Origin: Hawksworthiomyces lignivorus
Lineage: Eukaryota > Ascomycota > Sordariomycetes > Ophiostomatales > Ophiostomataceae
Reading direction: 5' to 3'
Assembly: GCA_002917075.1 (NCBI GenBank)
Contig: NTMA01000051.1
Location: 222,700 to 286,699, forward strand
Length of the DNA stretch: 64,000 bases
Shown here piece after piece: positions 16,733 to 55,880 of the stretch. Within the stretch, counting starts at the first letter, position 1; each line of letters starts with the position of its first letter. The notes under the pieces were generated by a model, which saw only the letters and a program-made list of their open reading frames with translations, did no database searches and was not told the DNA's origin. A program made the position numbers and the translations under genes.

Positions 16733-16910
16733 TGTTAAGCAGTGCTTATATAATACCATGCCTGTAGGTTGATATCGTATGCCTATCACTTGAATACCGT
16801 GGTCATACACTGTATATAGCACTATATAGAGAGGGCTCCTCGCCCTGCCTCCCTCTAAGATATCCTTTTGGCCTCTCCTAATCAATGGCTCTACTCAAAC
16901 TGGCTTGACA
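16733..16910 (+). repeat. Copia 3' LTR
   Basis: 178 bp, TGTTAAGCAGTG..GGCTTGACA, directly preceded by a purine-rich tract and downstream of the pol fragment in the same orientation. It matches the LTRs at 9962-10137 and (inverted) 10795-10972. Confidence 0.92.
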
Positions 16911-26807: not shown

Positions 26808-26873
26808 TGGTATTTAAACTTACATGTACATAAGTTATTTTCTTCTGTTTAGGCGACCTTCCTAGATAGGAAA

Positions 26874-26917
26874 TTTTTACAGATTTCCTAAAACAGACTT
26901 GTCGTTACAAATAATAC
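26874..26917 (+). repeat. Left copy of 44-bp flanking direct repeat
   Basis: Starts TTTTTACAGATTTCC and ends CGTTACAAATAATAC. It matches 55837-55880 at 37 of 44 positions, with mostly transition differences. It overlaps an inverted repeat GGAAAT..ATTTCC (26869-26888). Confidence 0.6.
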
Positions 26918-27099
26918 GAAAAGAAAATAAAATAAAAAGTGAGTATTGAAAATCAACCAACTCGACTTAGTTTTATACGACATCGAATTTTCGAATCTTA
27001 CTAAGTGAATGAAATTGAACCCTACTCAGAAACGGACGTCCTCTTGCAGTCCTTTCATTTTCTTAGCTGTCTAGACCCACTTCGAGATTCGTAAGAAGC

Positions 27100-27219
27100 C
27101 TTCATTTTTGGCCCCTGCCAGAGTTCATTTTTTCCTCCCTGTCTCTCCCCACTTTCTCCCCACTTTCCCCCCTTGTAGCCTTCATTTCAGGGGTAGGCTT
27201 CATTTTTAGACTTCATTTT
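27100..27219 (+). repeat. CTTCATTTT motif series
   Basis: CTTCATTTT-like words occur at 27100, 27123 (GTTCATTTTTT), 27180, 27198 and 27211, spaced irregularly around a pyrimidine tract. Role unknown; it lies about 390-510 bp upstream of the giant gene. Confidence 0.5.
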
Positions 27220-27319
27220 CTTTCGTAAGTTAGGGTACGAGTCTCGGCTTACGTTTATTCAAAGTCATTTCATGTTCATCCCCATGGCTCATCTCTATAA
27301 ACGTAGTCATTCATGCTCA

Positions 27320-27548
27320 TTTCCATGACCACGGTCGTAGAAAAGGAGGTGAATGATCTCTTCGACCACGGTCATAGAAACCGACACAATGCTTACCAGT
27401 GACCAAGATGGGTTCATTTTATTTGATTGCGGTCGCCTATGATGGTAGTCGTAGAAGTGGCTATTCGTCTTTTCTATGACCACGGTCATGGAAACCCATC
27501 AACCGTAACTTTCAATTTAAAAGCCATCAATAACCACGGCCATAAAGA
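27320..27548 (+). promoter_or_regulatory. Array of imperfect 24-bp palindromes upstream of the giant gene
   Basis: The unit is left arm TTTCYATGACC, spacer AC, right arm GGTCRTRGAAA. Copies: 27320-27343, 27357-27380 (left arm degenerate), 27471-27494 (best, one arm mismatch), and weaker ones near 27435-27457 and 27525-27548. The last ends about 60 bp before the ATG. Candidate roles are operator sites for a dimeric regulator, or subterminal binding sites for an element-encoded DNA-binding protein. The arms could also form hairpins. Confidence 0.6.
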
Positions 27549-27606
27549 TAAACACTCGTCGTTTTTCTCCACTCACAGTTATAACAACTAACATTGCTCT
27601 TACACC

Positions 27607-30600
27607 ATGGACATCTTTCCATTTTCTCACTTGTATGAGTTTCAGCTAGTCGTTTGTACGGTTTGTCAATTTGTCCATGTGGCAGACGAAGTTCTTACTC
27701 ACCTACAAACAAAACACAAAGACATCTCGCGGGCGCGGCAGAGTGCAATTGCCCAAGCGATCCAGCAGCTCGATGTTATCCCGAACCAGGCCGCACTGGC
27801 CAACTTTCGGTTTCCGCCGCCGTCTCGCTCGCCCATCGCGCAGCTTCAGCTGCCGAGGACGGATGGCCGACGGTGCCACGCATGTGGGTATATCAGCTGC
27901 GAGCCGCGGGTGATCCGAGCCCACTGTCGAGAGCAGCACCAGTGGCAGAATCCGCAAGGAAAGGGCCGGCCGAAAAAGGGCAGCAAAGCCAACGACGCCC
28001 GTACACGGCCGTGGCGCGAACACGTATGGTGCCAAAGGTTCTTTCCATCGCGGACGGCTAGCAGCTGGTTCGAGGTAAGCTGCACATCCGGCTATAAGCC
28101 ACAGACATCGATGCAGCCGGCGAAACAGTCCGGCTTACAGCGTGCATATGGCCATACGCAGCCCAAAACAAGTCTTGCGAATTTAGTATTTATCAACCAC
28201 GTATACCAACAAGAGACGCAAGCGAGCGTGCGGAGGCCATCCGAAACCGGCGCCGAAGGCCAAGAAACCGAAAATGAAACGTTTACGCAGCGCAACGGCT
28301 GGCTTACGCGTACACGATGGCCCACCACGTATCCAAAACAACGAGACGTACTTGCAAGACTCGCCCGACCTCCCGACCGTCGACAGCTCGACAAGAACTA
28401 TGTTGCTGGCCCCGGCATTGCAGGAAGCAGTAAAGAAAGCTGTCCAAGCGTTTGCAGCTCTAGCCAAGACGAACAACGGATTGCAAGTCTCGTCGATGCT
28501 GTGGATCGGATGCTTGACCGGTGCGAAGAGACGGTACGACATACTGGCCGACCGCTTCTCTGTTGGTTAAACAGCTGCGATCCGTACCGGAGCCGGCCGC
28601 AGCCGTTTCAGATCCCGTCACGGAAAGGGACAAGGATGTACTATGCGCGGGTGTGGAAACAGTGTCTTACTTTTGCGTTTCGATGCTGCCGGATGTCGAC
28701 CGAGACGCGGCGGAGGCTCATTGGGACAGTTGTTCGCCAAGAGGTGGTAGACCAAGTCGACACTCTCTGGCGCCACCGACTTTGGGACTGTATCGATGCA
28801 TCGTCTGGGCGATGGCCGGTCAACTGTACAACGGTGGCTGCGGCCCAGTCGTATGTAGCCGGGGCCGAGAGTGATGAGGTATACGAGGACGGTAGGAGTG
28901 GTAGAGGAGGGAAGGAGAACGATGATAAAGAGAACGAAGAGGAAGAAGAGAACGAATTAGACGAGGAGTATACCGCAGACGACGACGACAATGACAATGA
29001 CAACTTCTTTCTTACATCTCCGCAACAACGTACGTTATCGGTTTGCACAACGGACGTGCGACAAGCAACAAACGAGGTTCTTGAGCTTGTGTTTCGTCTT
29101 AGTATTACGATTAGCACGGAAACGCTAATCGACGGCCAGCCCAGCTCGACGCTTTTGATTTACTCTAGTGGAATTCTCGGCTTCACGGCCAACGGCGAAG
29201 GCTTTGCTCTTGCACGGAATTATACAACAACGCTGTCGGCACTCATTTACATCCAACGTCTGCTCTTACTGGAATGGACGTTACCGCTCCGGAACTACAC
29301 ATATCTTCACAGACCGAAACGGCCAACTACCGGTCAACTGAATCGACTACAAAGCATACGGCGTGCCAGCTTTACCGCAGGATGTGACGACCCGTTTGAT
29401 GAGGTCTTTTCACTACGCTGTCACGGTAGGACATGGGCAAAGGACGAGCCACCGTCGGTCTTTCTTCGATGGAGCGACGATGGGCAAGTCGTGTCGTACA
29501 ATATCGAGATCCAGTTAAACATGCAACAGTTCCGGAAACTGCCCGAGTACTTTTTGACAACAGCCGAAACACTCTACACACAGTTGCTTTATGGACTAAA
29601 GCTGCGGATTGATCTATCTCAGCTCCAAGATCAAATGAACAACACACAGGTTGGTTTCTCGTTCGTCAGCTATGGCGCGAACCAGTTGGGGCAAGCATAT
29701 CTGCGGCTTTTGACCGAGGATAGCATCTGTGGCCAGACCGATTTGGTACATAAAGGAGAGTGGAACCGCAAGGCTGTTGTCGACTATTTACAAACCGTTG
29801 ACGAACTTGAAAAAGCAGTGGTAGAAGGAGTGTATACGGCATGTGGGCAAATGTACAGGGCAGACGAGCTGCTAGAGCTGCTACTGGCGAACGGGCCATG
29901 TGGGATGCGAGGCTTTTACATTTGGAATGGCTTTGTGGTTTACATCGTACACCATCACAAAGCAAAGCGCTCTACCAACCAAGAGTTTTACGTCGCACGT
30001 TTTTTACCAGCACGGCTTGGACAGGTCGTGACCGGATATCTAGCATGTATACGGCCGTTTGCAGACTTTTTGTGGCGACAAGTGTTTGGTGCCGAGGGAG
30101 AAAGACAGATGACGAACTGTGAACGGCGCTTTTTGTTTGAACGGTATCGAAAAGGACCCGCGAGCGCATTTTTGACTCGGATTCTTGGGGACGCTACCGA
30201 GTATGTGTGGGGCAAGCGTGTGAACATTCAGCAGTACCGACAGCTGTCGATTGGGATTGCTGAGAAACACGTACGCGAGATGGTACAACCTTTTAACATT
30301 TACGACGACTATAACGCCGAAGCCGACTTAAACATGGCAATCGCGTGGCAGAGCGGGCACCGGCCGCTACAACGAGGCATCACGTATGGACTGGACGCGG
30401 CGTATCCGACCCGGTTGCAGCCGCCGTTGTTGCGCGCGTACGAGTGGGCGTCGACGCGGTGGCACGTCTTTCTTCGGCAGGCGAGTCGGATTGAGGCGCG
30501 GCCGGCATTGCAAGACGTACAACTCAATCGGCTTGAACAAGTGACACGTCAGACACGGCCGTCTTCGCTGCTGGCGACCGAGGTAGCAAATCGTTACGAA

Positions 30601-31057
30601 CGCCAAAATGGTACGGCTGCAACGCTACAGACGACTGGATCAGGAGCCGAATCGCTCCAGCAATGCAATGTTGCAGACGACCCGACCGACTGGATTCGTC
30701 GGCCGCCGCCATTCATGTCTAAAAGACCATTCGCCAAACCGGTGTACCAGGCCAAGACGTGGGACGAGGTGCTTTGTATTAACGAAGAGTACCGGGCATT
30801 GATTTGCAAGTTGTGTCAAACAACAGTTATGTCAGGAAAAAAATTACGGACTCATTTGACAAGACATCGACTTAAGGAAGTCATACTTCGCAAGACTATT
30901 CTTTATTGTTCACAGTTTGTGTTTATCAATCCACAGATCGATCCGCTACCGGCCGACGGGTCACGAACAATCCCCGAACTTCCAATATACAATGGCTACC
31001 AATGTACGTAGTGCTCGTATCGGAACCGGGTACAAGACAATATAACACGACATTGGC
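27607..31057 (+). pseudogene. Giant OrsD-RecQ gene, segment 1: OrsD domain 1, recombinase-like region 1, start of OrsD domain 2
   Basis: Open from ATG 27607 for 1,134 codons to TAG 31009-31011, then readable in the same frame to the gypsy insertion at 31058. OrsD 1 has two C2H2-like pairs (C17/C20..H32/H37 and C90/C93..H106/H111) and closes with VWCQRFF (about 140-146) and SSWFEV. Next come GWLTRTRWP, a linker with an acidic E/D-rich stretch (about 430-465), and a region about 600-985. This has RWSDDG..YN.E, GMRGFYIW, VARFLPARLG, and QSGHRPLQRGITYG followed by a WHVFL motif. From about 1,067, ICKLCQTT..LRTHLTRH begins OrsD 2; its second finger (YQCT, stop, CSYRNRV) is cut by the TAG and the insertion. 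A nuclear DNA-binding role is likely. Related OrsD proteins are often annotated near biosynthetic genes, but no such link is seen here. Confidence 0.85.
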
Positions 31058-31559
31058 TGTTACAAAACTACAATAAACAATGTATAGAGTGATCAGGTCT
31101 AATGTTTATGTTCTGAGTAAGAATTGTGTAGTGTATTAATATATGTAATGAGGGCACTGAATGGTAGAGAAGTGTTCTATGTAAGTCTCAAGATTCAGAC
31201 AAGTGGTAACGATTGGATCGTTACTGTAAACTATCTAAGTTATTTAGGTAGGGAATGTGTAGTTATATAGATGTACAATTTTATTCGTACTTTATATTGA
31301 ACTTTATTTTTTATATGAAGTTTATTCCAACTTTATACCAAATTTTATTTTTTGTATAAAGTTTAGTTATATAATCTTTTTGGTATAGTATTCTTATTAG
31401 TATCTAAATTCGTATAGTATATTTGTTTATTTTAGTATATTATTGATATTAGTCTTTTATGATATTATTTTTATTTATATATTAATATAATCGTTTTATT
31501 ATACTTTATCGTTTTTTTTTAAGGTTTTAATTTAGGTTTTTACGTTTTATTTCGTAATA
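31058..31559 (-). repeat. Left LTR of the outer gypsy element
   Basis: 502 bp. It is aligned to the split right LTR and to the solo LTR at 50423-50927. It is visibly more C-to-T mutated than the 45473-45876 portion of its partner. Confidence 0.92.
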
Positions 31560-34500
31560 TGATTTTTCTCTTTTAGGTTTTCGTTTTAAAAATAATAAAA
31601 AATTATATTTGTTTTTTTTTTGTTTAAATTTATTTTGTAAGGTATTTTTCTTTTTTTAATATATTTAGTCGTATTATGAAGTGGGTCGTTAATAATTTTG
31701 TTTAACGTTAAAAGATAATTTCCAAACTTGAAAATTTAGATTTTAAAAGTATATTTTGTTTTCGTTATATTCGTTTGTCGAAAGATTGTATTTAATCGAT
31801 TATGTCGACTTTAAAAACGAAATATTATATTATTTACGTTTATGTAAATATTAAATATAATAAAAAAGATATCGTAATAAGTTTTAATAATGTTTTCGTT
31901 TTTAATGATTTTTTTTATTTTGATTTATTAATTATTTATTAATTAAACGATAATTCTTCGAGTCTCAAAAACTAAATAATATAATCGAAATTATAAAATT
32001 AGTTTTAGAGAAAATAATTATTCGTTTATATCGTTTTTGTATTTAATATTGTATTTATAAAACAAAACGTCGTAAAATGTTAAAAGAAATATATATTAAG
32101 ATAAATATAAAAGATAAAAAACATTAATGTAAAAAGAAATAAATTATAATATTAATTATAAAAGAAATATAAATAATAATAAAAATTATTAACGTCGATT
32201 TCGATTAAAGTTTTATTTTTAAAAATATTTTTAATATTTTTTTTAAAAACTTTTGAAGTTTTAAAATCTTTAATAAAATAATTTATAATTTTTAAATATT
32301 ATATTTTATATTAGAATTTTTTTATTTAATTAAATATTCGTTTTTATATTTATATTTTTTTTTAATTATTGTTTTTAATCGATATATAATAATCTTTTTA
32401 ATTTCGTAAATTTTTTCGTTTATATAATAATTTATTTAATAATTTTATAATATTTCGAATTTTCTTTATTTTAGATTATTAGTTAATTCTTAAATATTTT
32501 CTTTTTTTGAATAATTTTTTTATTTGATAAAATATTCGATTATTTAATTTTTTCTTTTTTTGTAAATTACGATTTGTTTTATTTTATAATTTACTTTTTC
32601 GATAATCTTTTTCGTAAATAATAATATTTTTAAATTTATAGATTTTAATAATAAAATATAAAATATCGAATATATTCGTGATTTTTTTAATAATCGTAAT
32701 TCGTAATTAACGTTTAATATTATTCATTTAATTTTATAAAGTTTGACTTTTTGGAAATTTAATTTTTCGTTTTATTATTTTATTCGAATATTTTTGTATT
32801 TTAAATAAATTTTATTTTATTTTTTTTAAAATTGATTTTTTAATTTTATATTTATTTATTTGATTTTTTTATCGTTATTATATTTTTTTAATTTTTTTTC
32901 GTAATTTTATATGAATTTTTTATATTATTTGTATTATATTAGTTATTATTAATATATTATTTAATTATAAATAATAGTTTATACGTAATTGGTATTCGTA
33001 ATTAGTCTTAAATAATATTTTTTTCGTGTTTGAATATATCGAATTGTTATACGTAAATTATATCATAAATAATTATTTTATTTAATCGTTTTAGTTTATA
33101 TTCATAAATGTTTTTAAATACTTTTTTAAGATTTGGTTTATTTTTTCGTTTTTTTCGTTAATTTGTAAATAAAACGTTATATTAAATTTTTGTTTAATTT
33201 GTAATTATTTTATTAATTTGATAATAAAATTATTCGTAAAAGTAATTTCTTTATTATTAATAATGTTTTTTGGAAATTCGTAATTTGTAAAAATGTATTT
33301 TAAACAAAAATAAGTTAAGTTTTTCGACGAATGACTTTTCTTAAATAATAGAAAATAAACGTATTTGGTAAATCGATTATAAATAACGAATATATTATTA
33401 TACTTAGTTTTGATAATTGATTTTTTTAATAAAAATAGTTTGATAATAAAGTTTTATATTATCGATTTTTAAAGTTTTTTTAAAATAAATAATAACTTTA
33501 ACTTTTTATATAATTTATATTTTTCTTCGTTTTTAATTTGTTTATATATATTATACTTTATTATTATATTTATAATATCGTTAATTTATTTTGTAATATT
33601 ATAACTTTTTTTTAATTTTATTGTTGTTTTGAATATTTCGAAATGTCTTTTCGTAAAATTTTCATAAATCTTTTTTATAATTATTCGTTTTATTTTAGAA
33701 TTGAGTTCTTTTTTTATAGTTTTAATCATAAGAGTTTTGTTTGATTATTAATCGAATATTTGTTTTATGATTTCTTCGATATCGTTGTAATTTTTTTTTT
33801 TACTTAAAATATTGGTTTTTTCGTTTTCTTTTCTCTTTCGATATTTTATTTATAAATTAAATTTTAATAAAAATTAAGTTTATTTGATTTGTTGTTTATT
33901 TAGTTTTTAGTTATAAACGAAGTATATAAGGTTTTTGTGGTTCGTATAAACTTTAATTGAGTATTTAGTTTTTCTTAAATATATTTTTCATTCTTTTATA
34001 ATCTTAATTATTATTATGAGTTTTTTGTTATAGATTAGATATCGTTATACGAGTTTGTTGATTTTTTTCGAAAAGAATATTATAAAATGTAATTTTTCGT
34101 TTTTGTCTTTTTGGAATAATTGTTCTTTTAATATTTTTTTTTAAAACATTAACTTTAACTTTATAAAGTTTTTTTAAGTTGGTTTTAATTATAACTAGTT
34201 TCGACGTTATTTTTTTTTTGATTTCGTTAAATGTTTTTTGTTGAGTTTGGGTTTATTTAAAGAAAATATCTTTTTGAGTCATATTTGTTATAAGTATCGT
34301 AATGTCGTTGAATTCTTTAATAAATTTTTGGTAGAATTTTATATATTTAACGAATATTCGTATATTAGTAATATTTTGGGGTATTGGTCATTTTAATATT
34401 GTTTTAATCTTTTTAGAGTTTATTTTTATTCTTTTTGATTTTAATACGTATTTTAGAAACGTAGTTTCTTAAACGTAAAATTTGTATTTCTTAATTTTGG

Positions 34501-37500
34501 TTAAAAGAAAGTGTTTTTCCATTTTGGATAATATTTAATATATATATTTTTAATATTTTTTTAGAGTTTTCGAATAAATTAGTATATTATTTAAATAAAT
34601 TGTTATGAATATGTTTAAGTATTCTTTAAGTATATCGTTGATTAGTTCTTAAAACGATACAAATATATTGGTTAATTCGAATAATATGACTAAAAATTCG
34701 TAATATTCGTATTTGATATAAAAGGTCGTTTTTTATTTTTCGTCTTTTGTGATTTTGATGAAGTTATACGTTTCTCTTAAATTAATCTTTGTAAATTATT
34801 TCGTTTTTTGTAATCGGTCTCGTATTTCGTTTATAATAAGTAATAAGTATCGATTTTTGATAATTATCTCGTTTAATTGTCGGTAGTTTACGTAAAATCT
34901 TAATTCATTATTCTTTTTTGGTATAAAGAAAATAAATGTTTTTGTAAGTAATTGTAAAAATTTAATATATTTCTTTGTTAGATTTTCGTTTAGTAATTCT
35001 TTTAGGGTTATAAGTTTGTTTTTGTTTAAAAGATATATTTTTTGAAAATCTAATATTGTTTTTTTTCGTAATAAGATTTTGTAGTCGTAGAATTTATATT
35101 GTAATAGTTTCGTTTTTAGTTCGTGTCTTTATAGTTTTTTATATTTATAATACTATTTTAGTATGTGATGGATTTTGTTTTGTTTTTTTTTTATTAATAT
35201 ACTTAAAGTTTTGATAATTGTTTTTTAAACTTTCGTATTTTGAAAGTTTATTTGACTAATGGTTTAATTAATTATAAAGTTTTCTTTTTTTAGTTACGAA
35301 AGTTTTAATATAATTTTTATATTTTTTAGGTTTATAATATCGAACGTAATCGTTATATTTTTGTTTAACATTTTTATAATAATCGTTAATGTTTTTCGTT
35401 TTATTAGATCATCGTTGTAGTTTGTTTTTTTTTTTTTTAAAGTTTTTTATAAGGTAGAGTTTTTTCTTTTTCTATTAAGGAATTAGTTTTTTTTTGTGGT
35501 TTATATATTTTGGTGTAATATAGTTTTCTTTAATATTCGAGTTAATTATGACGTTAAAGTATCGTTTATTAATAATAATGAATATAATTAATTGTTTTTT
35601 TTCGAAATTAATATTTTTTAGGATTTTGTTTTGGTTAAATTTGTATTATCGTTTTATTATAATAAATTAAATTTGTTTTTTGTTTATTTTGTTTTTCGTT
35701 GTTTTCGTCGGGTTTTAGTTTTTTCTTATTATTTTTTTTCTTTTTTCTTGTTTGTTTTTGTTTGTTTGAGTCGGAATTCTCTTTTTTATTAATGTTTAAT
35801 ATTAATATAAATCGGTGATCTTATATCGTAATTAATGATATAAAGTTGTTATAAGTTTATATTATAGTCGAAGTTGTAAATTGTTTTGTTTTCGAAGTTT
35901 GAATGGTTTTTGGGTTATGATCGAAATGGTTTTTCATAATATTATATTATTTGTTTTTTGATTTGTTTTTTATATTATGTCAAAGTTTTGTAAGATATAT
36001 ATATTTCGTATATAAATTCTTTATAATCAAATTATAAGATATCTTAATCGTAATTTATGACGATTTTATCTTTTTTGTATAATTTGTCGATTTTTTGGTT
36101 TTATTTTAATAATTCATTAATGTTTATTTTTTATTCATTGATATATAATTAATAAATAGTCTTTGTTTTTTTTCGATATTTTTTTTAAATAAAAAAACGT
36201 TTTTTTGTTCGTATTAGAATTTTATTTTTAGTATTATTATCTTAAGATTATAATCTTATTCATTTTCGTTTTTAGTAATTATTATGATTTTCTTTAGAAT
36301 ATTTTTTTATTTTTGTTATACTTTTTGTTTTTTTTATATATACGTAAACTTTGTGTCGTAAATTGAATATAGTTAAAATCGTTTATCGTTAATATCGTAT
36401 AAATATTTTTATTTAAATCAAACTTTTAGTTTTAGAAATTTGTCGTAATAATATATATAACATTTGTATTTTTTATATTAGGTTTAATATAATATTTTAT
36501 GTCTTTTTTTTTTTAATTTAATAAATATATTATTTGATTCGAAGTCTTTTTTAGTATTTGTTCTCTTTAAGTTCGTACGGTTTTTCGGGTTTATTTCCTT
36601 AAAGAATAATTGGTTTTTCGTGAGTTTTTTAAAAATCGTTAATTTATGTCGTATTATTTTGACAATTCGAGTTTGGGGGTATTATTTAGTTTCGTCTTTG
36701 TTATTTCGATACATTATATAATTGTCGTCGTAGTATATTGTTTAATTTATTAAGTTATAATTAAAGTTCGTTTATATCTAAATAATCTTTTTAGATTTAG
36801 AGATTCTTTAAGTGTTTTTTTTTTCGATTTGTAGTTTTTGGTTAAATGTTTTGTTTTGTTATAGTTATAATATTTGTGTGTTTTTGTCTTAACTTTTTGA
36901 ATGATTTGGTTTAATTGTATAAGGTCTTTATATTATTTAAATTTGTTTTTTTTCTTTTTGTGATAATCGTTTCGATACGTTTTTTATTTTTTTTATATTT
37001 ATTTATATAATCGTTTATCGATTTATATTATTATCGTTATATAGTTCGTTAAATCGTTTAGTTAGTTTATTTTGTTGATTTTATTTTTAATGAATTTCTT
37101 TACATCTCGGTAGAATTATATCATCATAAATTCGTTATTTTAATTTATTATCGTTATAAGACATTTAAACTCGTTAACGTATTACGAGATTGATTTGAGT
37201 TATTTGAGTTTAAATAACTTTCTTTCGTTTTTTCGATCAATGTCTAAGTCTTCGAAGACTTTTTTGAGTTTTTTTATAAACTTGTTATAGTTTTTGAACA
37301 TTTTTTTTATATTGGTTATTATATTGTTTAAACTTTTCTTATTATTTAGAAAATTCGTAAAATAAGATTTTGTTTATATCGTCGTAAATTCTTTTAAATA
37401 ATCGATAATGATAAATATTTTGTCGGATTTCTTTATTGATATATTAATTAATTAATACGTTAAGTATAAACGTAATTGTGTAAAAAAAACTCTTAAATTG

Positions 37501-37821
37501 GTTTAAGTATCGTCGAATTTATTAAACGTATTAATTTTTAACGAATTATATGTCGATTCTCGTTAAACGATAAGGTTTTCGAAATACGTAACTTTGTTCG
37601 TTTTTGTAACGATCTCGTCGTTCAAAATAATCTTTTTAGTTTCGAGTTATTTAATTTTCCATTATAAGACTAATATATTTTGTTAAATAAAGATAAATAC
37701 AAATGGTATGGTTAGAATGATTGAAATTCTTAAAAAACTTATAATAGTTTGTTTTCCCGATATAGTATTAAAATATTATCTAATTAATATATTATCAAGT
37801 CTAAATAAAAATCGTTATTGT
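31560..37821 (-). pseudogene. Degraded gag-pol of the outer gypsy element
   Basis: Reading the minus strand, a gag zinc knuckle remnant (YYNYNKTKHLTKN, Cys changed to Tyr) lies near 36826-36880. A recognisable Ty3-type reverse transcriptase lies near 34560-34920: LRFYVNYRQLNEI, KNRYLLLIINEIRDRLQ, WKTTF-like sequence with Trp changed to stop, and the catalytic loop IYLNDILIYSKT (Asp changed to Asn). Gag on the right and RT further left agree with minus-strand transcription. The integrase end lies towards 32-33.5 kb but I did not resolve its motifs. Very many stops from G-to-A and C-to-T changes make it incapable of coding. Confidence 0.85.
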
Positions 37822-37920
37822 TGTTACAAAACTATAATAAACAATGTATAAAGTAATTAGATCTAATGTTTATGTTTTGAGTAAGAATTATGTAATATAT
37901 CAATATATATAATGAGGGTA
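37822..37920 (-). repeat. Right LTR of outer gypsy element, first part
   Basis: 99 bp from TGTTACAAAAC to the insertion point of the inner element. It ends with GGGTA (37916-37920), the left target duplication of the inner element. Confidence 0.93.
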
Positions 37921-38173
37921 TGTCACGATACACGGTCCCGTGACATGTCACGGGACCCCGCACGTACCTAACTCCAACATAGTAGGTACAGTGTAAATAC
38001 ACGGTTCAGACTCCCATATGGACACTGTATTAACCCTTCAAAATCTTTAGTCGAAATCCTCTCAAGAGAGTCGACTAAGATTCAGTCTTGTAATTTACCA
38101 CTTCTGTGCGTTGTTAATAAATACTTCTCATCCTCTTACTATCTTTACTTAACTCACAAGTCACTTCTTAACA
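37921..38173 (+). repeat. Left LTR of inner gypsy element
   Basis: 253 bp. A perfect 24-bp palindrome lies at 37934-37957 (arm GGTCCCGTGACA), near the 5' end of the LTR, where promoter elements are expected. Confidence 0.95.
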
Positions 38174-45214: not shown

Positions 45215-45467
45215 TGTCACGATACACGGTCCCGTGACATGTCACGGGACCCCGTACGTGTCTAGCTCCAACGTAGTAGGTACAGTGTGGATGTACGGTT
45301 CAGACTCTTATATAAACATTGTATTAGTTCTTCAAAACCCTTAGTCGAAATCCTCTCAAGAGAGTCGACTAAGATTTAGTCTTGTAATTTACCACTTTTG
45401 TGCGTTGTTAATAAATACTTCTCACCCTCTTATTATCTCTACCTAACTCACAAGTCATTCCTTAACA
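45215..45467 (+). repeat. Right LTR of inner gypsy element
   Basis: 253 bp, same ends and same 24-bp palindrome as the left LTR. Followed by the GGGTA duplication. Confidence 0.95.
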
Positions 45468-45472
45468 GGGTA

Positions 45473-45876
45473 CTAAATGATAGAAAAGTGTTTTATATAA
45501 GTCTCAAGATTCAGATAAACGGTAACGACTGAATCGTTACCGTAAACTATCTAAACTATCTAGATAGAGAATGTGTAATTATATAAATATACAATTTTAT
45601 TCGTACTTTATACTAAACTTCATTCTTTATATAAAGTTTATTCCAACTTCATATCAAACTTTATTTCTTATATGAAGTTTAGTCATGTGATCCTCCTAAT
45701 ATAGTATTCTTATTAGTATCTAAGTCCGTGTGGTATACTTGTTTATTTTAGTATATTACTAGTGTTAGTTTTTTATAATGTTATCCTCATTCATATATTA
45801 GTATAGTCGTTCTGTCACATTTTACCGCCTTCCCCTTAAGGTCTCAATTTAGATCCTTACGTCTTATTTCGTAACA
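45473..45876 (-). repeat. Right LTR of outer gypsy element, second part
   Basis: 404 bp continuing the LTR interrupted at 37920; ends CGTAACA and is followed by TTGGC. It contains the hairpin CGGTAACGA-CTGAA-TCGTTACCG at 45520-45542. Confidence 0.93.
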
Positions 45877-45881
45877 TTGGC

Positions 45882-46978
45882 GAATAGTTAAACATAGTTC
45901 GGTCGGTACACAATATACAAATGTAAAGTTACAGTCATGGTGTGGAGGAAGTTTTGTCCGTTACTGGATTGTTCAAAATAACTAGAATCGGTCACAGAAA
46001 GAAAAAAAAAGTTATAACAGCGGCAGTTGCGCAATGTGCAGCCGCATACAACGACGGACGTGCCATTTCGTCGGCTGGCATACGAGTCGTCGATGGACAA
46101 GTACAAGTTGGTGGGGCAGCGGTTTTTGATGTTCTGCTACCGCGCACAGCAGCTAGGACGGGAAGAGGCCGAAGAACAGTGGGCAGTGCGGTGGACGGAC
46201 GAGCAGTGGAGTTTGTTCCAGGACGTCGTGTACGAGCTGGAGAGGGTAGAAGAGACGAGCCGGACAGCAGGGGGCGGCAGCCAAGCGGAAGAGAAAGGCA
46301 ACGACATGAACCGTTGGACATTCAGCCCCGCGCCGGCGGCACAAGGCGACGGGGACAATGCAGCAACGCAGACGTTAGATCAAGCTTGTTTTCGATTTGT
46401 GGTAACATGCATCCAAGACCGCATCGGCGGCAATCCATATACGAACGTGCTGTTGTGTTTCTGTGCGGCGTTGGGGATCCGGCTGCATCCGGCCGGGTTC
46501 AGCGAGCCGCTTGGATACACGGGGCCGTTGGCGGCGATTCTGTGGTGGAGCCGGGTGTTCTTCTTGGAGGCATCGTTTGCGGGCGAGCCGTTGGAGCTAG
46601 ACACGCTGTCGTACAAGACGTTGGTGCAGTTTGACGAGCTGTATGCGCAGTGGCTGTGTAGCGGGACGCATTCGACGGTGGACGTGTTGTTGGAGTGGAT
46701 GTCGTACGGCAAGGGCTACCGAAAACAAGCGATGGGGCGGGCAACGATGCGGTGGTCGGCGGACCGGGCGATATTGTTTTACAACGGCGAGACGATTCGG
46801 GTACAGGACTTCCAGCGGACGTTGTGTGGGCTGGTCGAGCAAGCAGAGCAGAAGCTGGACAAGCTGTTTGGCGGGAAATGGGCGCAGTCTCGCGACAAGA
46901 TCGATTTAAGGCGGATCCAGGACCGCATGGAACGGCTTGGGACAGGGAAGTCGTTTGCAACACAAACAGCCAACGCGT
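45882..46978 (+). pseudogene. Giant OrsD-RecQ gene, segment 2: rest of OrsD domain 2 and start of recombinase-like region 2
   Basis: Taking up the frame from 31057 through one TTGGC, the DNA reads HWRIVKHSS, then LQSWCGGSFVRYWIV. This corresponds to the VWCQRFF..WFEV end of OrsD domain 1. TAG 45983-45985 and a frameshift in the A-run near 46000-46018 follow. From 46018 the next frame is open to the LINE: SMDKYKLVGQRFLMFCYRA, WTDEQWSLFQDVVYEL, an Ala/Gly linker, YTNVLLCFCAALGI, then RWSADRAILFYNGE..QDFQ. This parallels RWSDDG..YN.E..QQF of region 1. The frame ends in TQTANA at the LINE border, where the 14-bp duplication AACAGCCAACGCGT begins, and resumes in segment 3 without loss of frame. 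Confidence 0.85.
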
Positions 46979-47217
46979 AAAAACAATGTAACATAACAGG
47001 AGCCGCCAAGCTCCCGTGGTTTTTAGCGAGCTTCCTTCTCTGGTTTAGCCGTCCAAGGCATTGATTTTGGAGCCAACAAACACTGAAAGACTTTTCATCC
47101 TACCCGCTCTTTAACCTGGTCTAGACGAGACGTGAACCACTTAAAATCTGCTTCTGAATGCCCTTATCGCCACCTCCTTTGCTATTGTTATTCTACTGCA
47201 CACACCTCTCTCCTCCC

Positions 47218-48743
47218 ATGGCTGCTGCCGGGACTAGGGCCGCCAGCGCCCTAGCGGCCCGCGCGGCCCATACCGCTACCCCCTCTTCTCCTCTCTCCGC
47301 CTTCTCCTCGCCGAACCCATTCGGCCCTCTAAGCCCTGGCGACCACGGCGACCTCCCCGACGCCGACGCGGTCGACACCACGCCCGCCCGGCAGACTGCC
47401 GACTGCATTACCGTTCGCCCCTCCTCACCAGCAGAGGCTCCGCGGCACCCTCCCTCCTCTCTTACAAAAGCCCTCAGCAGTCCCCCAACAGCCGCAGGCC
47501 CTCAAGGGAAGAAGCGACGATACTTCGACCTCACGTTCTCCCCTCCACCGCCCACACCACCCACCCTGACCACCTTGCCGTCCTCCTCAGTCGTCAGACG
47601 GCCCAGAGGGTTAGCCACCAGCCACCACGTCACCACCCTCTTCGCCGAAGGCGTGTCGTAGGTCGTAGCCGAGATTTGTCAAATCCCGACGAACCAACGA
47701 GAGGCCCTCTCCGTTATCATACAGACGATCCCACAAAAAGACCTTCACCTCGCCCACCTTATAGACGAAGCCCTCTAATACATATGGCATACGATCACTT
47801 CGTTGAAACTCATTAACCTTATCCTCACCATCGTCACCAACACTCTCTTCTCTGCCCCGAAACCTACAGACACTCTCCTCACAACCTCTTCAACAACTAC
47901 CTCTTTTACTAAACCCACCTACGTTTTCACCCTACGTACTAACCTACAACAACAACAAAAACAAACCTCACTAAACAACGAGACCACAAAAAGCTCCACA
48001 ACTACTACCATAAGACTGTCTAGGAGACTAGAAATCATATTGAAAACCAACGATATGGCTAATCCCCCCACTAGTCAACAAATCATACAGGCCGTCAACG
48101 AGACTGTCAATCGTACCAAACAGCCTAAGACCTTCGTCGTACGAACGTTGTTCAACGAAGACACCGTAATACTATTCGAGCCGTGTACGACCCGATAGTT
48201 CGCCACGAACTCCTTTTGGACTAACGTCCTCGACGTACGAACAGTCGTCTCTGGGCCGAAAGTGGTGATCCGACGAATTCTCGTGACCCTCCTACAAACC
48301 CCAGACCTTCCCAACCGTCTCGTCAGTCTTGTGAAAGTGTTAAACGTCCGTCCAATGATTAGTCAACTCCTCGTAACATTACAATTCGACTGTCTTAAAC
48401 TTACAATAATCACTAAGACAAACGTTAACAAACTCCTCCGCGAAAACCTTATTCTCGACTATAACTACTATAACGTCCAACCTTACCGCGAAGACCACCG
48501 GTCTCTATTATACCGTCGTTGTCAAACATGAGGCCATACGGCTTATACGTGTCGTCGTAATACCAAATGCGGGCACTACGGCCGAGGCCACTACTCCACG
48601 GACTGCACTACTCTCCCGGAAGACCGACAGTGTCCCAACTACGTCGACGACCACCCCACGTTCAGCCGCGACTGTCCTGTCGTTATAGAGACTATTAAGG
48701 CCTCCTCACACCAGCTCTCACAACCTCTCTACAGTCCTCTTTT
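47218..48743 (+). pseudogene. LINE ORF1 (gag-like, CCHC zinc knuckles), decayed
   Basis: It opens at ATG 47218 with an Ala/Pro-rich region (SSPNPFGPLSPGDHGDL) and stays open to TAG 47659-47661. Further coding resemblance continues in broken frames to zinc knuckles near 48550-48680, visible as C..C.KCGHYGRGH....DC and then CPNYVDDHPTFSRDCP. ORF1 proteins bind their own RNA for assembly. Many stops lie between 47660 and 48540. Confidence 0.75.
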
Positions 48744-51700
48744 ATGAAAGTGGTTACGTGGAATATTTACAAAAAGGTTATGAATACCAAAGAGGTACTG
48801 GTTTAGAGATATAGAACTAATATCGACGTAATTGTGATCCAAGAACCAATTGACTATACCGTCGTAGACGTCTCCGACGACGTTAATGACCTTTACTACA
48901 AGTTATGGATAAGTATAAGTCGTTTGACTGTTTATATCTCTAAAGTTTTACCAACCTCGTAGTGGGAATATACCGTCTATCACGATGTCGTACATATCAT
49001 TATATACGGACCACAAACCCTCTATATCTACGATCTCTATAATTCGAGACCACGTCACGACGAAACCTGGACCTCCCCCCTCACCACCTCTCTCTTCGTC
49101 CGCCGTCCACCACAACACCACCACGTCCTCTTACTAAACGACTTTAACCTCCACTATCTATTATGAGACAAATATAACAAGACCTCCGACCACGTGAAAG
49201 TCCTCCAAGACCTTACAATCCGTTGGGACCTTATCTTCCTTACCTCGTACGAGACGGAGACGTGGGTCCCTACGAGCCAACGGGCCGAAACGGACCGTCC
49301 TTCCACTATTGACCACATCTGGGCCTCACCTAGTCTAGAGACCACATACCATACCTATAATTGACCAAACTCAAACCACATAGTCCAAGATTGTTCCCTC
49401 GTCTTAGACGTCCCTTCGACACCAGCCCGGGGCTTCAATTGGGCCCGTATGAACACGGAGATAGTCTACAATCTTAGCCGTCAACTATTCGTCACACCAT
49501 TACCGACGACCCACACCACGACAAACCTCGAACATTATACCCAACAAGTTATCACCAAACTAGACGACATAGCCCGTGCCTCCACCCCCGTTAAAGACAC
49601 TGCCTCAACGTACTACCGTTACGACTGGGACCACCGTACCGAATTAGCCATAAATAATCTTCGTAAAACAAAAAGACGGGTACGAGATGGGGACCACTTT
49701 GAGTCAGTCCTACAGGTCGTACAAGAGGCCCGTAAGGCCCAACGACGTGTTCTTCGGTAGGTCAGAACAGAACGTTGACGAAACCTTTTGGGTTTTATTT
49801 CTACTCAACCCAAAAGGTTGTGGTACATAGAGAAATAGGTAAGACTTCGTAGTCACGTACTTATCGTACCACCAAAACTCCCACTTTTACGGAGGCCCAC
49901 CGGGACCCTCACCACCTCTCACGAAGAGAAGGCGGTCCTTCTAACGGCCCGCTTCTTCCCGACCCTCGTTGTCGAGCCCCCACCGGCCGTACGACGGTTT
50001 GGGCCACAAATCTTCGTCAACCAAATTGTTACGACAGACGACCTAGTCATAGTTATATATAGTATATTCTTATACAAGATTGTAAGACACGACAACTTTT
50101 CTAACGTTTTGTTACGAGTCTACGGTCTTTCTCTCTATATCACATTAGTCTACTTAATTATAGACAATCTTCGATTAGATCACTGGTCGTCTTATTTCAA
50201 ATATTTTTGTATTATCGTTATCCCGAAACCCGACAAAACCTCGTCTGATCGTTAAGAGGCCAAAACCTGACGGTCTATAACTTTGTTAAACGTTGTAAAC
50301 AAAGCCATAAAGAAGGTTGTGGCTCGTCGTTTTACAGACATCGTCGAAGACAACCATCTTTTTCCGGAGGAGTAAATGGACAATCGTCGACAACGGTCTA
50401 CGAAGTTCGTCGTTCGTCTAGTTGTTACGAAAAAGAACGTAAGGATCTAAATTGAGACTCTAAGAAAAAGACGATAAGGTGTGGTAGAACGACTATGCTA
50501 ATATACGAATGAGGATAATATTACGAGGGACTAGTACTAGTAATATACTAGAACAGACAAGTGTATCATATGGACATAGATACTAGTAGGAATATTGTAT
50601 CAGGAGGATTACATAATTAGAACTTTATACGAGGAATAAAGTTTGATATGAAGATGAAATAAACTTCATATAAAGAATAAAGTTCAATATGAAGTTCGTA
50701 TAAAGATACACATTTATATAATTACGTATTCTCTACCTAGATAGCTTAGATAGTTTATGATAACGATCCAGTCGTTACCGTTTGTCTGAATCTTGAGACT
50801 TACACAAAACACTTCTCTACCATTTAGTACCCTCATTGTATATATTGATACATTACGTAATTCTTACTTAGAACATAAAACGTTAGACCTGATTATTTTA
50901 TATATTGTTTGTTATAGCTTTATAACATTAGTTACCGACAACGTACGTCGGGCTTGAACGGTTGACAACACTTTCTCCTTACTACAATTAAATATCCAAG
51001 ACGTGTTCGATAACGTAGACCACTATTAATTAATCTATACACTAACCTCCCTCGGTCTGTTTGATTAGTTAGTCCAATAAGTCCACCACTATCTCTTCTA
51101 TCGTATTATAAAACTGGTCTTCGACGATCGAACCGTTTCCGTCAGACCGATACGGGCCGACGTCTCTCAAGGTTCACCATTATCTCTTATTCTCTTTATT
51201 CTCTTCACTAGTCCTCTTTACCGAATTCTTCAACCTATTCAAAACATCGTTACCGTAGACTTCTTCGACGACACCAATATCCTCGTTATAAGTATTAACC
51301 ATACGTGGTGTTGTCATCGTCTTCTCTCAGTTTGGAAGACGGTCCTTCGTTGGGCCCGGTCTAGAGAGGTCGTATTCGTTTCGACGAAGTACGAGTTTCT
51401 TCATTTCAATAGAGCTCACGAGGCCCTCGACGTAGTCCTACGGTTAGACGGACATACGGTCCTCCGACCACTTGAACAAACCCGGTTCTTAGACATTTGA
51501 CTGGACCATAAACTGAATTTCAGTACCCACACCTCCGTAGTGGCCGTCAGACTTAAGACTCAAAGTCTCGTTTTGACTAAGCTCACCGACAAGACCTAGG
51601 GCTACCCCTTGTCGTGGGCTCACACTATATTCACCGTCGTGATACGAAGTACTATAACGTACGGTGCCGCGGTCTACCACACTCTTACCCCTCCTCAAGG

Positions 51701-52577
51701 CCACCCCAGAGACTCAGTCAAGACTTTACGTTCTCTCTATTTCCCTTTTCTTCGAACGGCCCTCGGGGCCTACCGGACCACCCCGGAACGTTTATTATAT
51801 ACGGAGGCCACACTGTTATCACTAGACCTATACTTTAACCAAAGACAAGCCGTCTTTCTAAACCGGAAGAACTATAAGACCAAATTATAGGCCTTCGACC
51901 AATACGTCTACCGTAAACACTACGGAAGCGACGTTCCCCCTCTCCTACCAGACCCCTACTTAAAACACGATCTCATCCTAAACCCTTGAGACAAAGCTCG
52001 TACTCTAATTATTTGACAAAGACATTGACAAGACTTTGACGAAGATCTACGACAATCTGTCTACCTCAACTTACATTAGACTCCTAAGACAACTCTATAG
52101 ACCCACAACCACTTCACCAAAGCCGAAAGTAGTATCCTCACACAGTTTCGTATAAGACATATAGGTCTCGTAGTTTTTTTACACCAACGACGTCTCAGAG
52201 AGGCCCCCACCTATATCTACGACGACGAGGATGAGACGATCGAACACGTACTTCTCCGCTGTCCTCGAAAGACCGTCAAACCTCCGAATTGACCACAGAC
52301 CACAGAAGAACTGTACAACAAACTATACGAAGAAGGAAAGACCGTTAGACCTATCCTCCGGTGGTTTAAACGTAGTAGACGAATACCAAACTACCGCCTA
52401 ACCGCCAGACTAGAAGAGAACACCCCACAGGAAACAACAGAAGAGACCTCACTGGAGGCCGCAAAAAAGATCCTGGAGACAGCAGAGGAGGCGGCAGAGG
52501 CCGCCGCGGAAGCTACAGAGGAGGCAGCAGAGGAGGCAGAGGTGATGGTGGTGAGAGAGGCCTTTGAGAGGCTGTGA
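48744..52577 (+). pseudogene. LINE ORF2 (endonuclease-reverse transcriptase), interrupted and decayed
   Basis: From ATG 48744 it reads MKVVTWNIYKKV and IVIQEPI, the start of an APE-type endonuclease that nicks the target. RT follows: VIPKPDKTSSD, ITLLNVVNKAIKKVVARRFTD and HLFPEE up to the solo LTR. After the LTR come VSQGSPLSLILFILF and the catalytic FFDDTNILV (from a FADDT-type motif), then TTPERLLYTEATLLSL (thumb region). A C-terminal knuckle EHVLLRCPRKTV and RPILRWFKRSRRIPN precede the EAAEE-rich tail ending REAFERL at 52577. Numerous nonsense codons are present, mostly TAG or TGA. Confidence 0.88.
50423..50927 (-). repeat. Solo LTR of the outer gypsy family, inside the LINE
   Basis: 505 bp, matching 31058-31559 in inverted orientation over its whole length. 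Flanks are CTAGT (50418-50422) and TTAGT (50928-50932), a 5-bp duplication with one C-to-T difference. It splits the LINE reverse transcriptase. Confidence 0.92.
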
Positions 52578-52768
52578 TGGAGGTAGAGGAAGCAGCAGGA
52601 GGGCCAACAGGGCCCACACAACACCCATACAACCACACCACCTACTGTAATCTTATTTGTATTAGCACCTAGTTAGTTCTATAGCGGTTTCTGCCCCGGG
52701 AGGGTTCCGTTAGCTTAGGCGTTACATAGCCAGGATTGGCTGAAAGATATATATAAACGTTGAAACCT

Positions 52769-55757
52769 AACAGCCAACGCGTGGCTGAAGCCCGGGCCGC
52801 GGAAGGTGCTGATGGCGCTGAAGGGTCAGCTATGGAACACGAAAGAGAAGCAGTGGCAGACGGAAGCGGTGCAGAAGTGGCTGGCGGAACTGTTGCAGCT
52901 TCGGCAGGACATGATGGCGATCGTGGCCACGTGGTGGGGGGCAGGCGGGCGAGGGCCGGAGGTAGCAACGCTGCGGCACTGCGATACGTGGCAAGTGATG
53001 CGCAATGTGTTTGTGACCAGTGGCCAAGTGACGCTCGTGACAGATCGGGACAAGATGAAGGCGATTCGAGACATTGGCCGCAAAGTGGCGCGGTTTTTGC
53101 CAGAGCGGCCCGGACGCATGCTGGTCGCGTACATCTTGTGGCTGCTGCCGGCCGAGGAGATGCTGTTGAAACAATGTAGGCTGCCGCAGCCGGCGGACGC
53201 GGACTTGGCGTACTTGTGGCGGAGCGGCAACAGCGGGTCATGGGACGCCAGCCGGCTAAGCGCTATTCTCGGACGGGTGTTCAAGAAAGGGACAGGAGTA
53301 GCATTAGGGCTGCAGCGGTACCGGCAAGTAATGGTTGAGATGGGCCGGCAGATCAAGGGGATTGTGCTGCGGCAGCTGGAGACCGCAGATGGGGCAGACT
53401 CGGACGACGAGGGCGTGGAAGTGGACCCGGTGACGGGCGAGATAATGGCGATGGACGGCAGCTGGAACGTGGTGTGGGATTTGCAGGCAACACATGGGAC
53501 ACAGGTGGCGCGGAGGCACTACGGGGTACACATTGGCTATGTAGGGAACTTACAGCCAGAGATGATGGAGACGTATCGGGATATCAGCGAGCTCTGGCAT
53601 CGGTTTTTGGAGAAAGGGTACGAGAAGAAGACAGCAGCGTCGGCGTCGATGCGCGAGAAAGACAAGGAAGACGAGGAAGACGAGCAGAACAAAGAGAACA
53701 AGGCGCCGGAGGGACACAAGAGCTCGAAATGACAGAGGGCAACGTCGGACGCGGCGTCGTACGCGAAGAAGCGGGCAGCGTTAGGCGGGACAAATGGACT
53801 GGTTGTATATACGGATATCACGGACGGGTTACAGAAGTTGTTTGGGACAGAGGCAGAGTGGCGGACGGTGAAGCAAGAGGCGTGTATGCGAATGACGCTG
53901 GGGCTTGGCAATGGACAGTCGGGGATCTGCGTGTTGCCGACCGGGGCAGGCAAGAGCATTTTGTTTCTGTTGGCAGCGGTGCTGCCGCATACTAGGACGA
54001 GCGTGGTGGTGGTACCGTTTGTGGCGCTGTTACGGGACTTGGTGCAACGGGCACAAGACATAGGGGTAGACTGCGTTGCGTTCGACAGCGGCCGGGCACC
54101 AGAAGAGCCCAAACAGCGAGCGGCGCGGCTTGTGGTGGCCAGCGCAGACGTGGTGGACGGGGAGGCGTTCTGCGGGTATGTGGATGGGCTGGTGGCAGCG
54201 GGGCTGCTGCAGCGGATTTTCGTGGACGAGTGTCATACGGTGATGATGGATGCCAGCTACCGCACGCGTCTGGGCGAACTGCGCAGCTTGCACCGGTTCC
54301 ATCGAGCTTTGGTGTTGCTGACAGCGACGCTGCCGCCACTACTCGAGCCATGGTTGCGGGAGGAGATGCACGTACAAGAGGCGGCGATGATACGGGACCG
54401 GACGACGAAGCTCAACGTGCAATACCAGGTCGAAGTGGTGAAACAGGTGCAGATGCGGGGCGGGACGGCCGAGGTGCTTGAACGGGCGGTGGAGATCATG
54501 CAAGAGCTGGGAGCGGCGATGACGGGGTGGCAAAAAGGGGTAGTGTACTACCGGTCACGACAGCAGTGCGCGACAGCAGCAGAAGCGCTGGGGTGTGAGG
54601 CGCACCATAGCGGCATGACGGAGGAAGCACGGCAGGCGGCGCGCGAGGTGTGGATGAAGGGACGTGGCGGACACCGATGGATTGCGGCCACGAGCGGATT
54701 GGGGACGGGAGTGGACATCGAGGGGATCGTTGCAGTAGTGCACGTGGGGCGGCCGTACGGGTTGGTGGATTTTGTGCAACAGACAGGGCGCGGAGGTCGA
54801 CGCGCAGGAGAGATGGTGCGGTCGGTCGTGGTGTATGACGGACGGCAGAGACGTGTGGAAGAGACAGAAGGGTACGTGGAACGGGTGAACCGAGAAGCAA
54901 TGGATGCGTTTTTGGAGACAAGCGGGTGCCGGCGGACGGTGATCGAGAAATTCATGGATGGGAGGGCAAGGGAGTGGTGTGGCAACATTGCGGGTGCGGT
55001 GCGGTGTGATCAATGTTCGGAAGGGAGCAGGGCAGAGACCAATGTGACGTCAAGCAGTTTCTACAACAGCCAGACCAGCGATCTGGACAGTATTTTGAGC
55101 GGCAGCAGGGATTCCAGCAGTCAGACCAGTGTCGATGTCGAGAGCAAGAACGAGGACGAAGACGAGGACGAGGAAGGAGACGGAGAGGAGAGCGAAGGAG
55201 ATATAGAAGAAACCGAGGAAGACGGTATATGGACACGGGTGTGCAAAGAAGAAGGCCGGCGCGAAACGTTGGTGCAGTGGTGGTTAGGCGAAGTCGGAGA
55301 AGAGTGTGCGGCATGTCATGTAGTACGACAACAATACTTCAAGTTGGACTCGGAACAGAAGAGATTGTGGAAGGAGTGTGGAAGGAGAGAGCGTTGCAAA
55401 GTTGTATCGGACATTGAGGTGGCAGAAGCGAAACGGAGGACAAAGTTTCCGCCGTTTACGTGTTGTTATCGATGCAAGCTGCCGTTGGATTGGTGCGAAG
55501 AGCGACGGAGGGATCGAGGGCAAGAGGAAGAATGCAAAGCAGAGGATGTAGTGACGCCAGTGGTGTTGTTGGCGATGGATGCAGGGTGGGCAGGAGGCAT
55601 ATTGGAGTCGATTGCAGGAAAGGAGTATGATTTTGTAGAGGAGTCGGTGTTTTTCCAATGGATTGGACAAGAACGGCGGTTCCACGGACGGCGGGGGACG
55701 AATGGGCTAGTATTATGGGAAGCGCTTCTAGTTGCAGCATTTGGTAATATGTATTAA
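52769..55757 (+). pseudogene. Giant OrsD-RecQ gene, segment 3: recombinase-like region 2 and RecQ-type helicase
   Basis: The frame resumes after the LINE as TANAWLKPGPRK. Region 2 continues with GGRGPEVATLRH, VARFLPERPGR, YRQVMVEMGRQI, and QATHGTQVARRHYG followed by ELWHRFLEK. An acidic linker ends at TGA 53730-53732. The same frame continues as TSDAASYAKKR and FGTEAEWRTVKQEA into the helicase: Walker A VLPTGAGKS, VVVPFVALLRD, the Walker B box VDECHTV, LTATLPP, KGVVYYRSRQQC, TSGLGTGVDIEG and motif VI QQTGRGGRRAGE. A cysteine-rich C-terminus follows (CDQCSE, CAACHV, CCYRCKLPLDWC). RecQ proteins unwind DNA 3'-5' with ATP. The helicase half (53838-55757) is intact as an ORF, and all catalytic motifs are preserved. 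Confidence 0.9.
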
Positions 55758-55836
55758 GAAAAGATTTAGATTTATTTATTTTTAATGATATGAACGATTT
55801 TTCTAAATAAGTTTTTTTTTTTTAAAAAAAAATCAG

Positions 55837-55880
55837 TTTTTATAAATTTCTTAAAACTAACTTGCCGTAACAAATAATAC
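55837..55880 (+). repeat. Right copy of 44-bp flanking direct repeat
   Basis: TTTTTATAAATTTCTT..CGTAACAAATAATAC, about 80 bp after the helicase stop codon. Same orientation as 26874-26917. Confidence 0.6.

What the first reader, a model, noticed from the sequence alone, without database searches (positions are those of the whole stretch)
26874..55880. Giant OrsD-recombinase-like-OrsD-recombinase-like-RecQ gene, possibly a self-mobilising element
Seen: three coding pieces that rejoin across two exact target-site duplications into about 2,500 codons, with two zinc-finger OrsD domains and a complete RecQ helicase motif set. Known: fungal OrsD-RecQ genes are repeated and often subtelomeric. Inferred: the two internal regions resemble tyrosine recombinases. 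Each has an Arg-bearing GMRG or GGRGPE helix, a later Tyr/Arg block (QQYRQLSIGIAEK; LQRYRQVMVEMGR), and a His..Tyr ending (QSGHRPLQRGITYG; QATHGTQVARRHYG), like the HxxR..GHSS..Y order of these enzymes. A protein combining zinc fingers, two recombinase folds and a helicase could cut, unwind and reinsert its own DNA.
Basis: partly seen in the sequence, partly recalled or inferred. Interest (0 to 1): 0.9.

Follow-up and report, generated by a model that had tools for sequence, protein, structure and literature searches.

The report
Telomere helicase gene hiding two recombinases
A broken copy of a fungal telomere-linked RecQ helicase gene turns out to belong to a family whose long unnamed middle looks like two tyrosine-recombinase (DNA cut-and-paste) domains, which could explain how these puzzling chromosome-end genes move.

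The parts
26834..26917 (+). left copy of a ~85-bp direct repeat (AGTTATTTTCTTC...ACAAATAATAC), between the upstream Ldh_2 gene and the TLH start
   Evidence: left-right BLAST E 3e-8; model R1 match 81 bits (a sequence the model was built from); solo copies at C129:2334-2422, C44:62901-63019, C150:203660-203687 (core)
27592..31008 (+). coding piece 1: open frame of 1139 codons (ATG at 27607): OrsD-1, core-binding-like region, recombinase region 1, start of OrsD-2
27622..27942 (+). OrsD zinc-finger domain 1 (PF12013)
   Evidence: residues 11-117
29038..30486 (+). tyrosine-recombinase-like region 1 (the part used for profile yr1)
29857..29859 (+). region 1 catalytic Arg I (GQMYRADEL)
   Evidence: 122 of 122 occupied; codon
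29959..29961 (+). region 1 Lys after the beta hairpin (HHHKAK)
   Evidence: 121 of 121 occupied
30238..30240 (+). region 1 catalytic Arg II (QQYRQL); the HxxR His position is Gln here
   Evidence: 114 of 114 occupied
30358..30360 (+). region 1 His (QSGH), 9 residues before the Tyr
   Evidence: 113 of 114 occupied
30385..30387 (+). region 1 presumed nucleophile Tyr (ITYG); low-confidence segment of the model
   Evidence: 113 of 113 occupied; pLDDT block 58
30772..31056 (+). OrsD domain 2, crossed by an in-frame TAG (31009-31011) and cut by insert 1
   Evidence: E 2.9e-13, 1 TAG inside
31053..45881 (.). insert 1: RIP-marked LTR-type element (GC 22%) with 5-bp TSD TTGGC at both ends (TSD included)
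46018..46977 (+). coding piece 2: core-binding / N-terminal part of recombinase region 2
   Evidence: blastp residues 116-319 vs piece 1 residues 492-697, E 4e-12
46966..52782 (.). insert 2: Tad-like LINE (RVT_1) with nested LTR-like fragments, 13-bp TSD ACAGCCAACGCGT at both ends (TSD included)
52764..53729 (+). coding piece 3a: catalytic part of recombinase region 2 (Arg 52950, Lys 53052, Arg 53322, His 53493, Tyr 53520; first base of each codon); ends at TGA 53730-53732
   Evidence: homologue model m1586fd18011d
53733..55754 (+). coding piece 3b: RecQ-family helicase (LPTGAGKS 53934, DECH 54225, TATLP 54321, QQTGRGGR 54777)
   Evidence: family profile
55791..55880 (+). right copy of the ~85-bp direct repeat, about 30 bp after the TLH stop codon
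   Evidence: R1 match 48.9 bits (in the training set)

Best explanation
The locus is a broken copy of a fungal telomere-linked RecQ helicase (TLH) gene. The unnamed middle of TLH proteins is two tandem tyrosine-recombinase-type domains, each with an OrsD zinc-finger domain and a helical core-binding-like region before it, followed by RecQ. SHOWN: architecture, fold match, invariant Arg-Lys-Arg-His-Tyr columns, homology of the two domains, single copy here, two later retroelement insertions, flanking ~85-bp direct repeats. INFERRED: the intact protein binds a short repeated DNA site through OrsD and core-binding parts; the two recombinase domains act as one half of the usual tetramer, cut strands through a 3'-phosphotyrosine and exchange them; RecQ opens or branch-migrates the joint. 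Such a protein could excise and reinsert its own gene at repeat sites and so spread through subtelomeres. TLH genes would thus be, or descend from, self-coded tyrosine-recombinase elements rather than plain host helicases.
Against: Foldseek alone is not significant for region 1 (XerH ranks 3 and 6, E 3.1 and 3.8), and no row of either PDB search reaches E 0.001. The segments bearing the Tyr are modelled poorly: pLDDT about 58 around the region-1 Tyr, under 50 for residues 788-834 of the region-2 model, which hold both His and Tyr; most VIA-align matches end before the Tyr, so His and Tyr rest on sequence conservation. Region 2 pTM is 0.49 and mostly its catalytic part matches. The viral library gave nothing; sequence searches of PDB and Pfam named no recombinase (in among the rows shown). 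The first His of HxxR is not kept: Arg/Gln in region 1, Ser/Ala/Gly in region 2. P0211 lacks the Arg-I stretch of region 2 (seen by eye). Only one copy and a remnant here. The flanking repeats are 84% alike over 44 bp, show no clear TSD, and no TLH remnant was found beside the solo copies. No empty site or excision product was seen.
Confidence: 0.55

Rival explanations
1. TLH proteins carry real, active recombinase-type domains but serve the host: a single-chain nick-and-close enzyme plus RecQ that dissolves or rearranges joint molecules at chromosome ends. The genes spread by ordinary subtelomeric recombination, not by their own enzyme.
For: Catalytic residues kept across more than 100 sequences per domain; topoisomerases of the type IB kind are among the structural matches; TLH genes are tied to chromosome ends and proposed to act in telomere maintenance (PMC10532341, PMC12857005 passages); fission-yeast tlh genes vary but hold no nonsense mutation (PMC7840980 passages; whether those have the recombinase regions was not tested).
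Against: A RecQ-bearing subtelomeric repeat of S. nodorum is RIP-mutated, though 26 putatively functional copies are also counted there (PMC3017866 passages); the present genome has only an interrupted copy and a remnant, so the protein is not essential here.
Confidence: 0.2
2. The recombinase folds are inherited relics used only to bind DNA. TLH genes are carried passively by ectopic recombination or break-induced replication at subtelomeres, like Y' elements.
For: First His of HxxR not conserved; no sign of recent spread in this genome; subtelomeric blocks are shared between chromosome ends in fission yeast (PMC7840980 passages).
Against: Presumed nucleophile Tyr, both Arg and Lys invariant or nearly so in both domains, which binding alone does not require.
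Confidence: 0.15
3. The ~85-bp repeats have nothing to do with the element: they are a small dispersed repeat family that happens to lie on both sides. (Not exclusive of the other readings.)
For: Three solo copies with no TLH remnant found nearby; left and right copies belong to slightly different subtypes.
Against: Few copies known in 43.7 Mb (5 places; divergent ones may be missed), two of them directly repeated and close to the two ends of the only TLH gene.
Confidence: 0.4
4. The fold match is a coincidence of helical bundles.
Against: Nearly all top rows are one superfamily, for two separate models, and the invariant residues are that superfamily's catalytic set in the right order and H-to-Y spacing.
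Confidence: 0.04

Closest known systems
Fungal telomere-linked RecQ helicases (TLH; tlh1/tlh2-like, UTASa/UTASb, tlh of Fusarium)
   Same: OrsD plus RecQ order; homologues named tlh2-like (P0130, 54% to the window's region 2) and tlh1 (P0238, 41% to P0161)
   Different: This copy is interrupted, single in its genome, and not shown to be at a telomere; the passages I saw in TLH papers describe no recombinase domain
Cre / XerH / Flp tyrosine recombinases and type IB topoisomerases
   Same: Fold of the catalytic part (both regions) and of the core-binding part (region 1) by VIA-align; Arg, Lys, Arg, His, Tyr set; H-to-Y spacing of 9
   Different: Roughly 10-15% identity; first His of HxxR replaced; two copies in one chain; linked to OrsD zinc fingers and RecQ
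Cryptons and Starship captains (fungal tyrosine-recombinase transposons)
   Same: Eukaryotic mobile elements run by a tyrosine recombinase (recalled)
   Different: No DUF3435 match in the window's pieces; single recombinase and no RecQ in those elements (recalled); flanking repeats here ~85 bp
Telomere-associated repeat families of Colletotrichum higginsianum with helicase and DUF3505 (OrsD) domains
   Same: DUF3505 plus RecQ-type helicase in a repeated unit at chromosome ends
   Different: Classed there as telomere-associated TEs; in the passages seen (PMC5576322) no tyrosine recombinase is named, and the transposase domain of one family is put down there to an inserted transposon

Membership tests
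Telomere-linked RecQ helicase (TLH) | RecQ-family SF2 helicase | tested here: met
   RECQ5 E 1.2e-23; BLM, RECQ5, RECQ1, WRN, RecQ, best E 1.7e-40, for the family profile; recQ_fam in 16 of 30 members
Telomere-linked RecQ helicase (TLH) | OrsD zinc-finger domain upstream, with sequence kinship to proteins named tlh | tested here: met
Telomere-linked RecQ helicase (TLH) | Lies next to a telomere | tested here: inconclusive
   The element ends 8.1 kb before the end of contig C139, but that end is poly-T, not telomeric repeat
Telomere-linked RecQ helicase (TLH) | Usual, not defining: several copies per genome | tested here: not met
   One copy and a 76-aa remnant in this genome
Tyrosine recombinase / type IB topoisomerase superfamily | Catalytic-domain fold | tested here: met
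   weak by Foldseek alone
Tyrosine recombinase / type IB topoisomerase superfamily | Arg I, Lys, Arg II, His/Trp and nucleophile Tyr in order | tested here: met
   counts for 123 and 129 sequences; window codons; meeting of His and Tyr in the pocket not shown, low model confidence there
Tyrosine recombinase / type IB topoisomerase superfamily | Usual, not defining: first His of HxxR (Lys in type IB topoisomerases, recalled) | tested here: not met
   Arg 66, Gln 44 of 114 in region 1; Ser 47, Ala 41, Gly 18 of 116 in region 2
Tyrosine recombinase / type IB topoisomerase superfamily | DNA cleavage through 3'-phosphotyrosine | not testable with these tools
   needs purified protein
Starship captain (DUF3435) | DUF3435 domain | tested here: not met
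   no match listed at E 1 or below in the window's pieces; the genome's DUF3435 pieces lie elsewhere (C101)
Crypton | Recombinase with GCR1_C-type domain, no helicase (recalled) | tested here: not met
   RecQ present and no GCR1_C match listed in the window's pieces
Self-mobilising element | Empty sites, excision or new insertions | not testable with these tools
   No relative's DNA is held; only flanking direct repeats and solo copies seen

The most novel reading that the evidence does not exclude
TLH genes are the drivers of an unrecognised class of fungal mobile element: one giant protein with two built-in tyrosine recombinases, zinc fingers for site choice and a RecQ helicase, which inserts at short repeated sites and colonises chromosome ends. 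The ~85-bp repeats are its attachment sites and the solo copies its target sites or excision scars.
Probability: 0.4. Interest if true: 0.9.

Novelty: new variant of a known kind. Interest (0 to 1): 0.78.

Why it matters
TLH genes have been recorded at fungal chromosome ends since the 1990s (the 1998 Ustilago and 2002 Magnaporthe papers are in the reference list seen; I did not read them) and are described by their helicase. If their middle is a pair of tyrosine recombinases, the open question of how they spread becomes directly testable: mutate the tyrosine, look for excision circles, map insertion sites. A recombinase fused to RecQ would also be a new arrangement for thinking about how strand exchange and unwinding are coupled.
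Full report
WHAT IS THERE. The window is the last 64 kb of contig C139 (286,699 bases) of a 43.7-Mb unnamed fungal genome. Between an Ldh_2 dehydrogenase gene (25866-26804) and a sugar-transporter gene (56305-57036, minus strand) lies one disrupted gene on the plus strand. Its open frames are 27592-31011 (1139 codons), 46018-46980 (320), 52764-53732 (322) and 53733-55757 (674). Pfam finds two OrsD stretches in the first piece and a DEAD/Helicase_C helicase in the last; the helicase matches solved RECQ5 at E 1.2e-23. No Pfam family is listed at E 1 or below for the regions between.

HOW IT IS BROKEN. A 14.8-kb AT-rich element (GC 22%, RIP index (CpA+TpG)/(ApC+GpT) 0.55) with LTR-like ends sits in the second OrsD domain, flanked by TTGGC. 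A 5.8-kb Tad-like LINE, also RIP-marked (0.62) and itself holding LTR-like fragments, sits in the second unnamed region, flanked by the 13-bp ACAGCCAACGCGT. The gene pieces are not RIP-marked by that index (0.96-1.34). In-frame stops at 31009-31011 (TAG) and 53730-53732 (TGA) add to the damage.

WHAT FAMILY. A search with residues 510-1020 of piece 1 found 230 proteins (120 listed); those with names are chiefly Fusarium and other Sordariomycetes, with a few from Pyrenophora, Hyaloscypha, Pseudogymnoascus and others, many carrying OrsD. A search with the catalytic part of piece 3 found 83, most with OrsD or helicase domains, one named tlh2-like. A third search from a more distant member found 101, including one named tlh1. 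This is the telomere-linked RecQ helicase family. Two kinds of predicted protein dominate: OrsD - region 1, and OrsD - region 2 - RecQ. Seven of the 249 stored sequences (the window's piece 1 among the 249) carry matches to both regions, some of them partial. P0211 (2032 aa, F. oxysporum) has region 1, region 2 and the start of the helicase, though its gene model lacks the stretch with Arg I of region 2 (by eye). Neighbouring locus tags on contigs of the same length (HIM_10604 and HIM_10606; Forpe1208_v012075 and v012076) carry the two kinds side by side in other genomes (names). The length limits of the searches would hide intact 2,500-aa proteins in part.

THE TWO UNNAMED REGIONS ARE TANDEM HOMOLOGUES. 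Piece 1 residues 492-697 match piece 2 residues 116-319 (E 4e-12), and piece 1 residues 711-964 match piece 3 residues 18-285 (E 2e-12). Profiles built from 88 and 53 sequences align over 454 columns with probability 100 and E 6.3e-53.

THE ACTIVE SITE IS KEPT. In 123 region-1 sequences the columns read Arg 122/122, Lys 121/121, Arg 114/114, His 113/114, Tyr 113/113. In 129 region-2 sequences they read Arg 117/117, Lys 122/122, Arg 115/116, His 107/112, Tyr 111/111 (denominators are occupied cells; domains under 60 bits, or better explained by the other profile, were dropped; the sequences are related and some come from one genome). By eye the two sets line up in the hhalign alignment. Spacings are 34-93-40-9 and 34-90-57-9; Cre has 28-91-23-9 (recalled). 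In both models the Lys follows a beta hairpin and the second Arg lies in a helix. The first His of the HxxR motif is not kept. The pieces in the window still carry all five residues in each region. A geometric pattern written from these spacings occurs in 201 of 249 stored sequences, in 1-3 of 249 after each of five shuffles, and in only these two of 96 frames of the window (a post hoc pattern).

SIGNS OF MOBILITY. The gene lies between two direct copies of a ~85-bp sequence: left 26834-26917, right 55791-55880, about 30 bp after the stop codon. Solo copies with unrelated flanks lie at C129 (2.3 kb from a telomere), C44 and C150. Searches found five places in the genome in all; divergent copies may be missed. 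No TLH remnant was found in the stretches held around the solo copies. This is what attachment sites or terminal repeats would look like, but a small dispersed repeat cannot be excluded: the two flanking copies are only 84% alike over 44 bp, and I saw no clear target duplication around them. The genome holds one TLH gene and a 76-aa remnant on C109, so there is no sign of recent spread here. In other fungi TLH genes are many: 14 to 37 TLH regions per strain in nine F. oxysporum strains (full plus truncated, Table 4 of PMC12857005, passage seen).

MECHANISM. Shown: the parts and their conservation. Inferred from the known chemistry of tyrosine recombinases (recalled): the protein would bind a repeated site, two domains per chain would supply half of the tetramer, tyrosines would cut and exchange strands, and RecQ would help open or move the junction. 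This would let the gene leave and enter repeats. The same parts could serve the host at chromosome ends, which is the main rival.

NOVELTY. The passages I saw in seven papers describe TLH genes, subtelomeric RecQ genes or TE-derived helicases by helicase, OrsD/DUF3505 and position, not by a recombinase. One treats helicase plus DUF3505 units as telomere-associated TEs (PMC5576322). Searches for the combination returned nothing relevant (see Tried and rejected). The library lacks preprints and most subscription papers, so prior notice cannot be ruled out.

VERDICT. Self-mobilisation is plausible and testable, not shown. This copy is a broken one of a widespread family.

Noticed in passing
[not shown]
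   Followed up: no
G000:C131, locus L033:4308-5774: An OrsD domain fused to a fungal transcription-factor domain (PF11951) in the same genome, perhaps an OrsD put to regulatory use.
   Followed up: no
G000:C101:347167-348592: Decayed Starship-captain (DUF3435) fragments, two of the three with stops inside, in this genome.
   Followed up: no
window 9975-10137, 10790-10976, 16731-16915: A ~180-bp repeat in direct and inverted copies, also on contigs C16, C129 and C131; looks like a short dispersed element, near an RVT_2 frame at 14860-16428.
   Followed up: no
window 7028-7104 and 52673-52749: A 77-nt sequence 94% alike in both places, the second near the end of the LINE insert.
   Followed up: no
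P0247, P0248: Divergent relatives (30% identity to P0161) keep the Arg, Lys, second Arg and Tyr, but by eye have Arg in place of the His nine residues before the Tyr, and carry a RecQ zinc-binding domain.
   Followed up: partly
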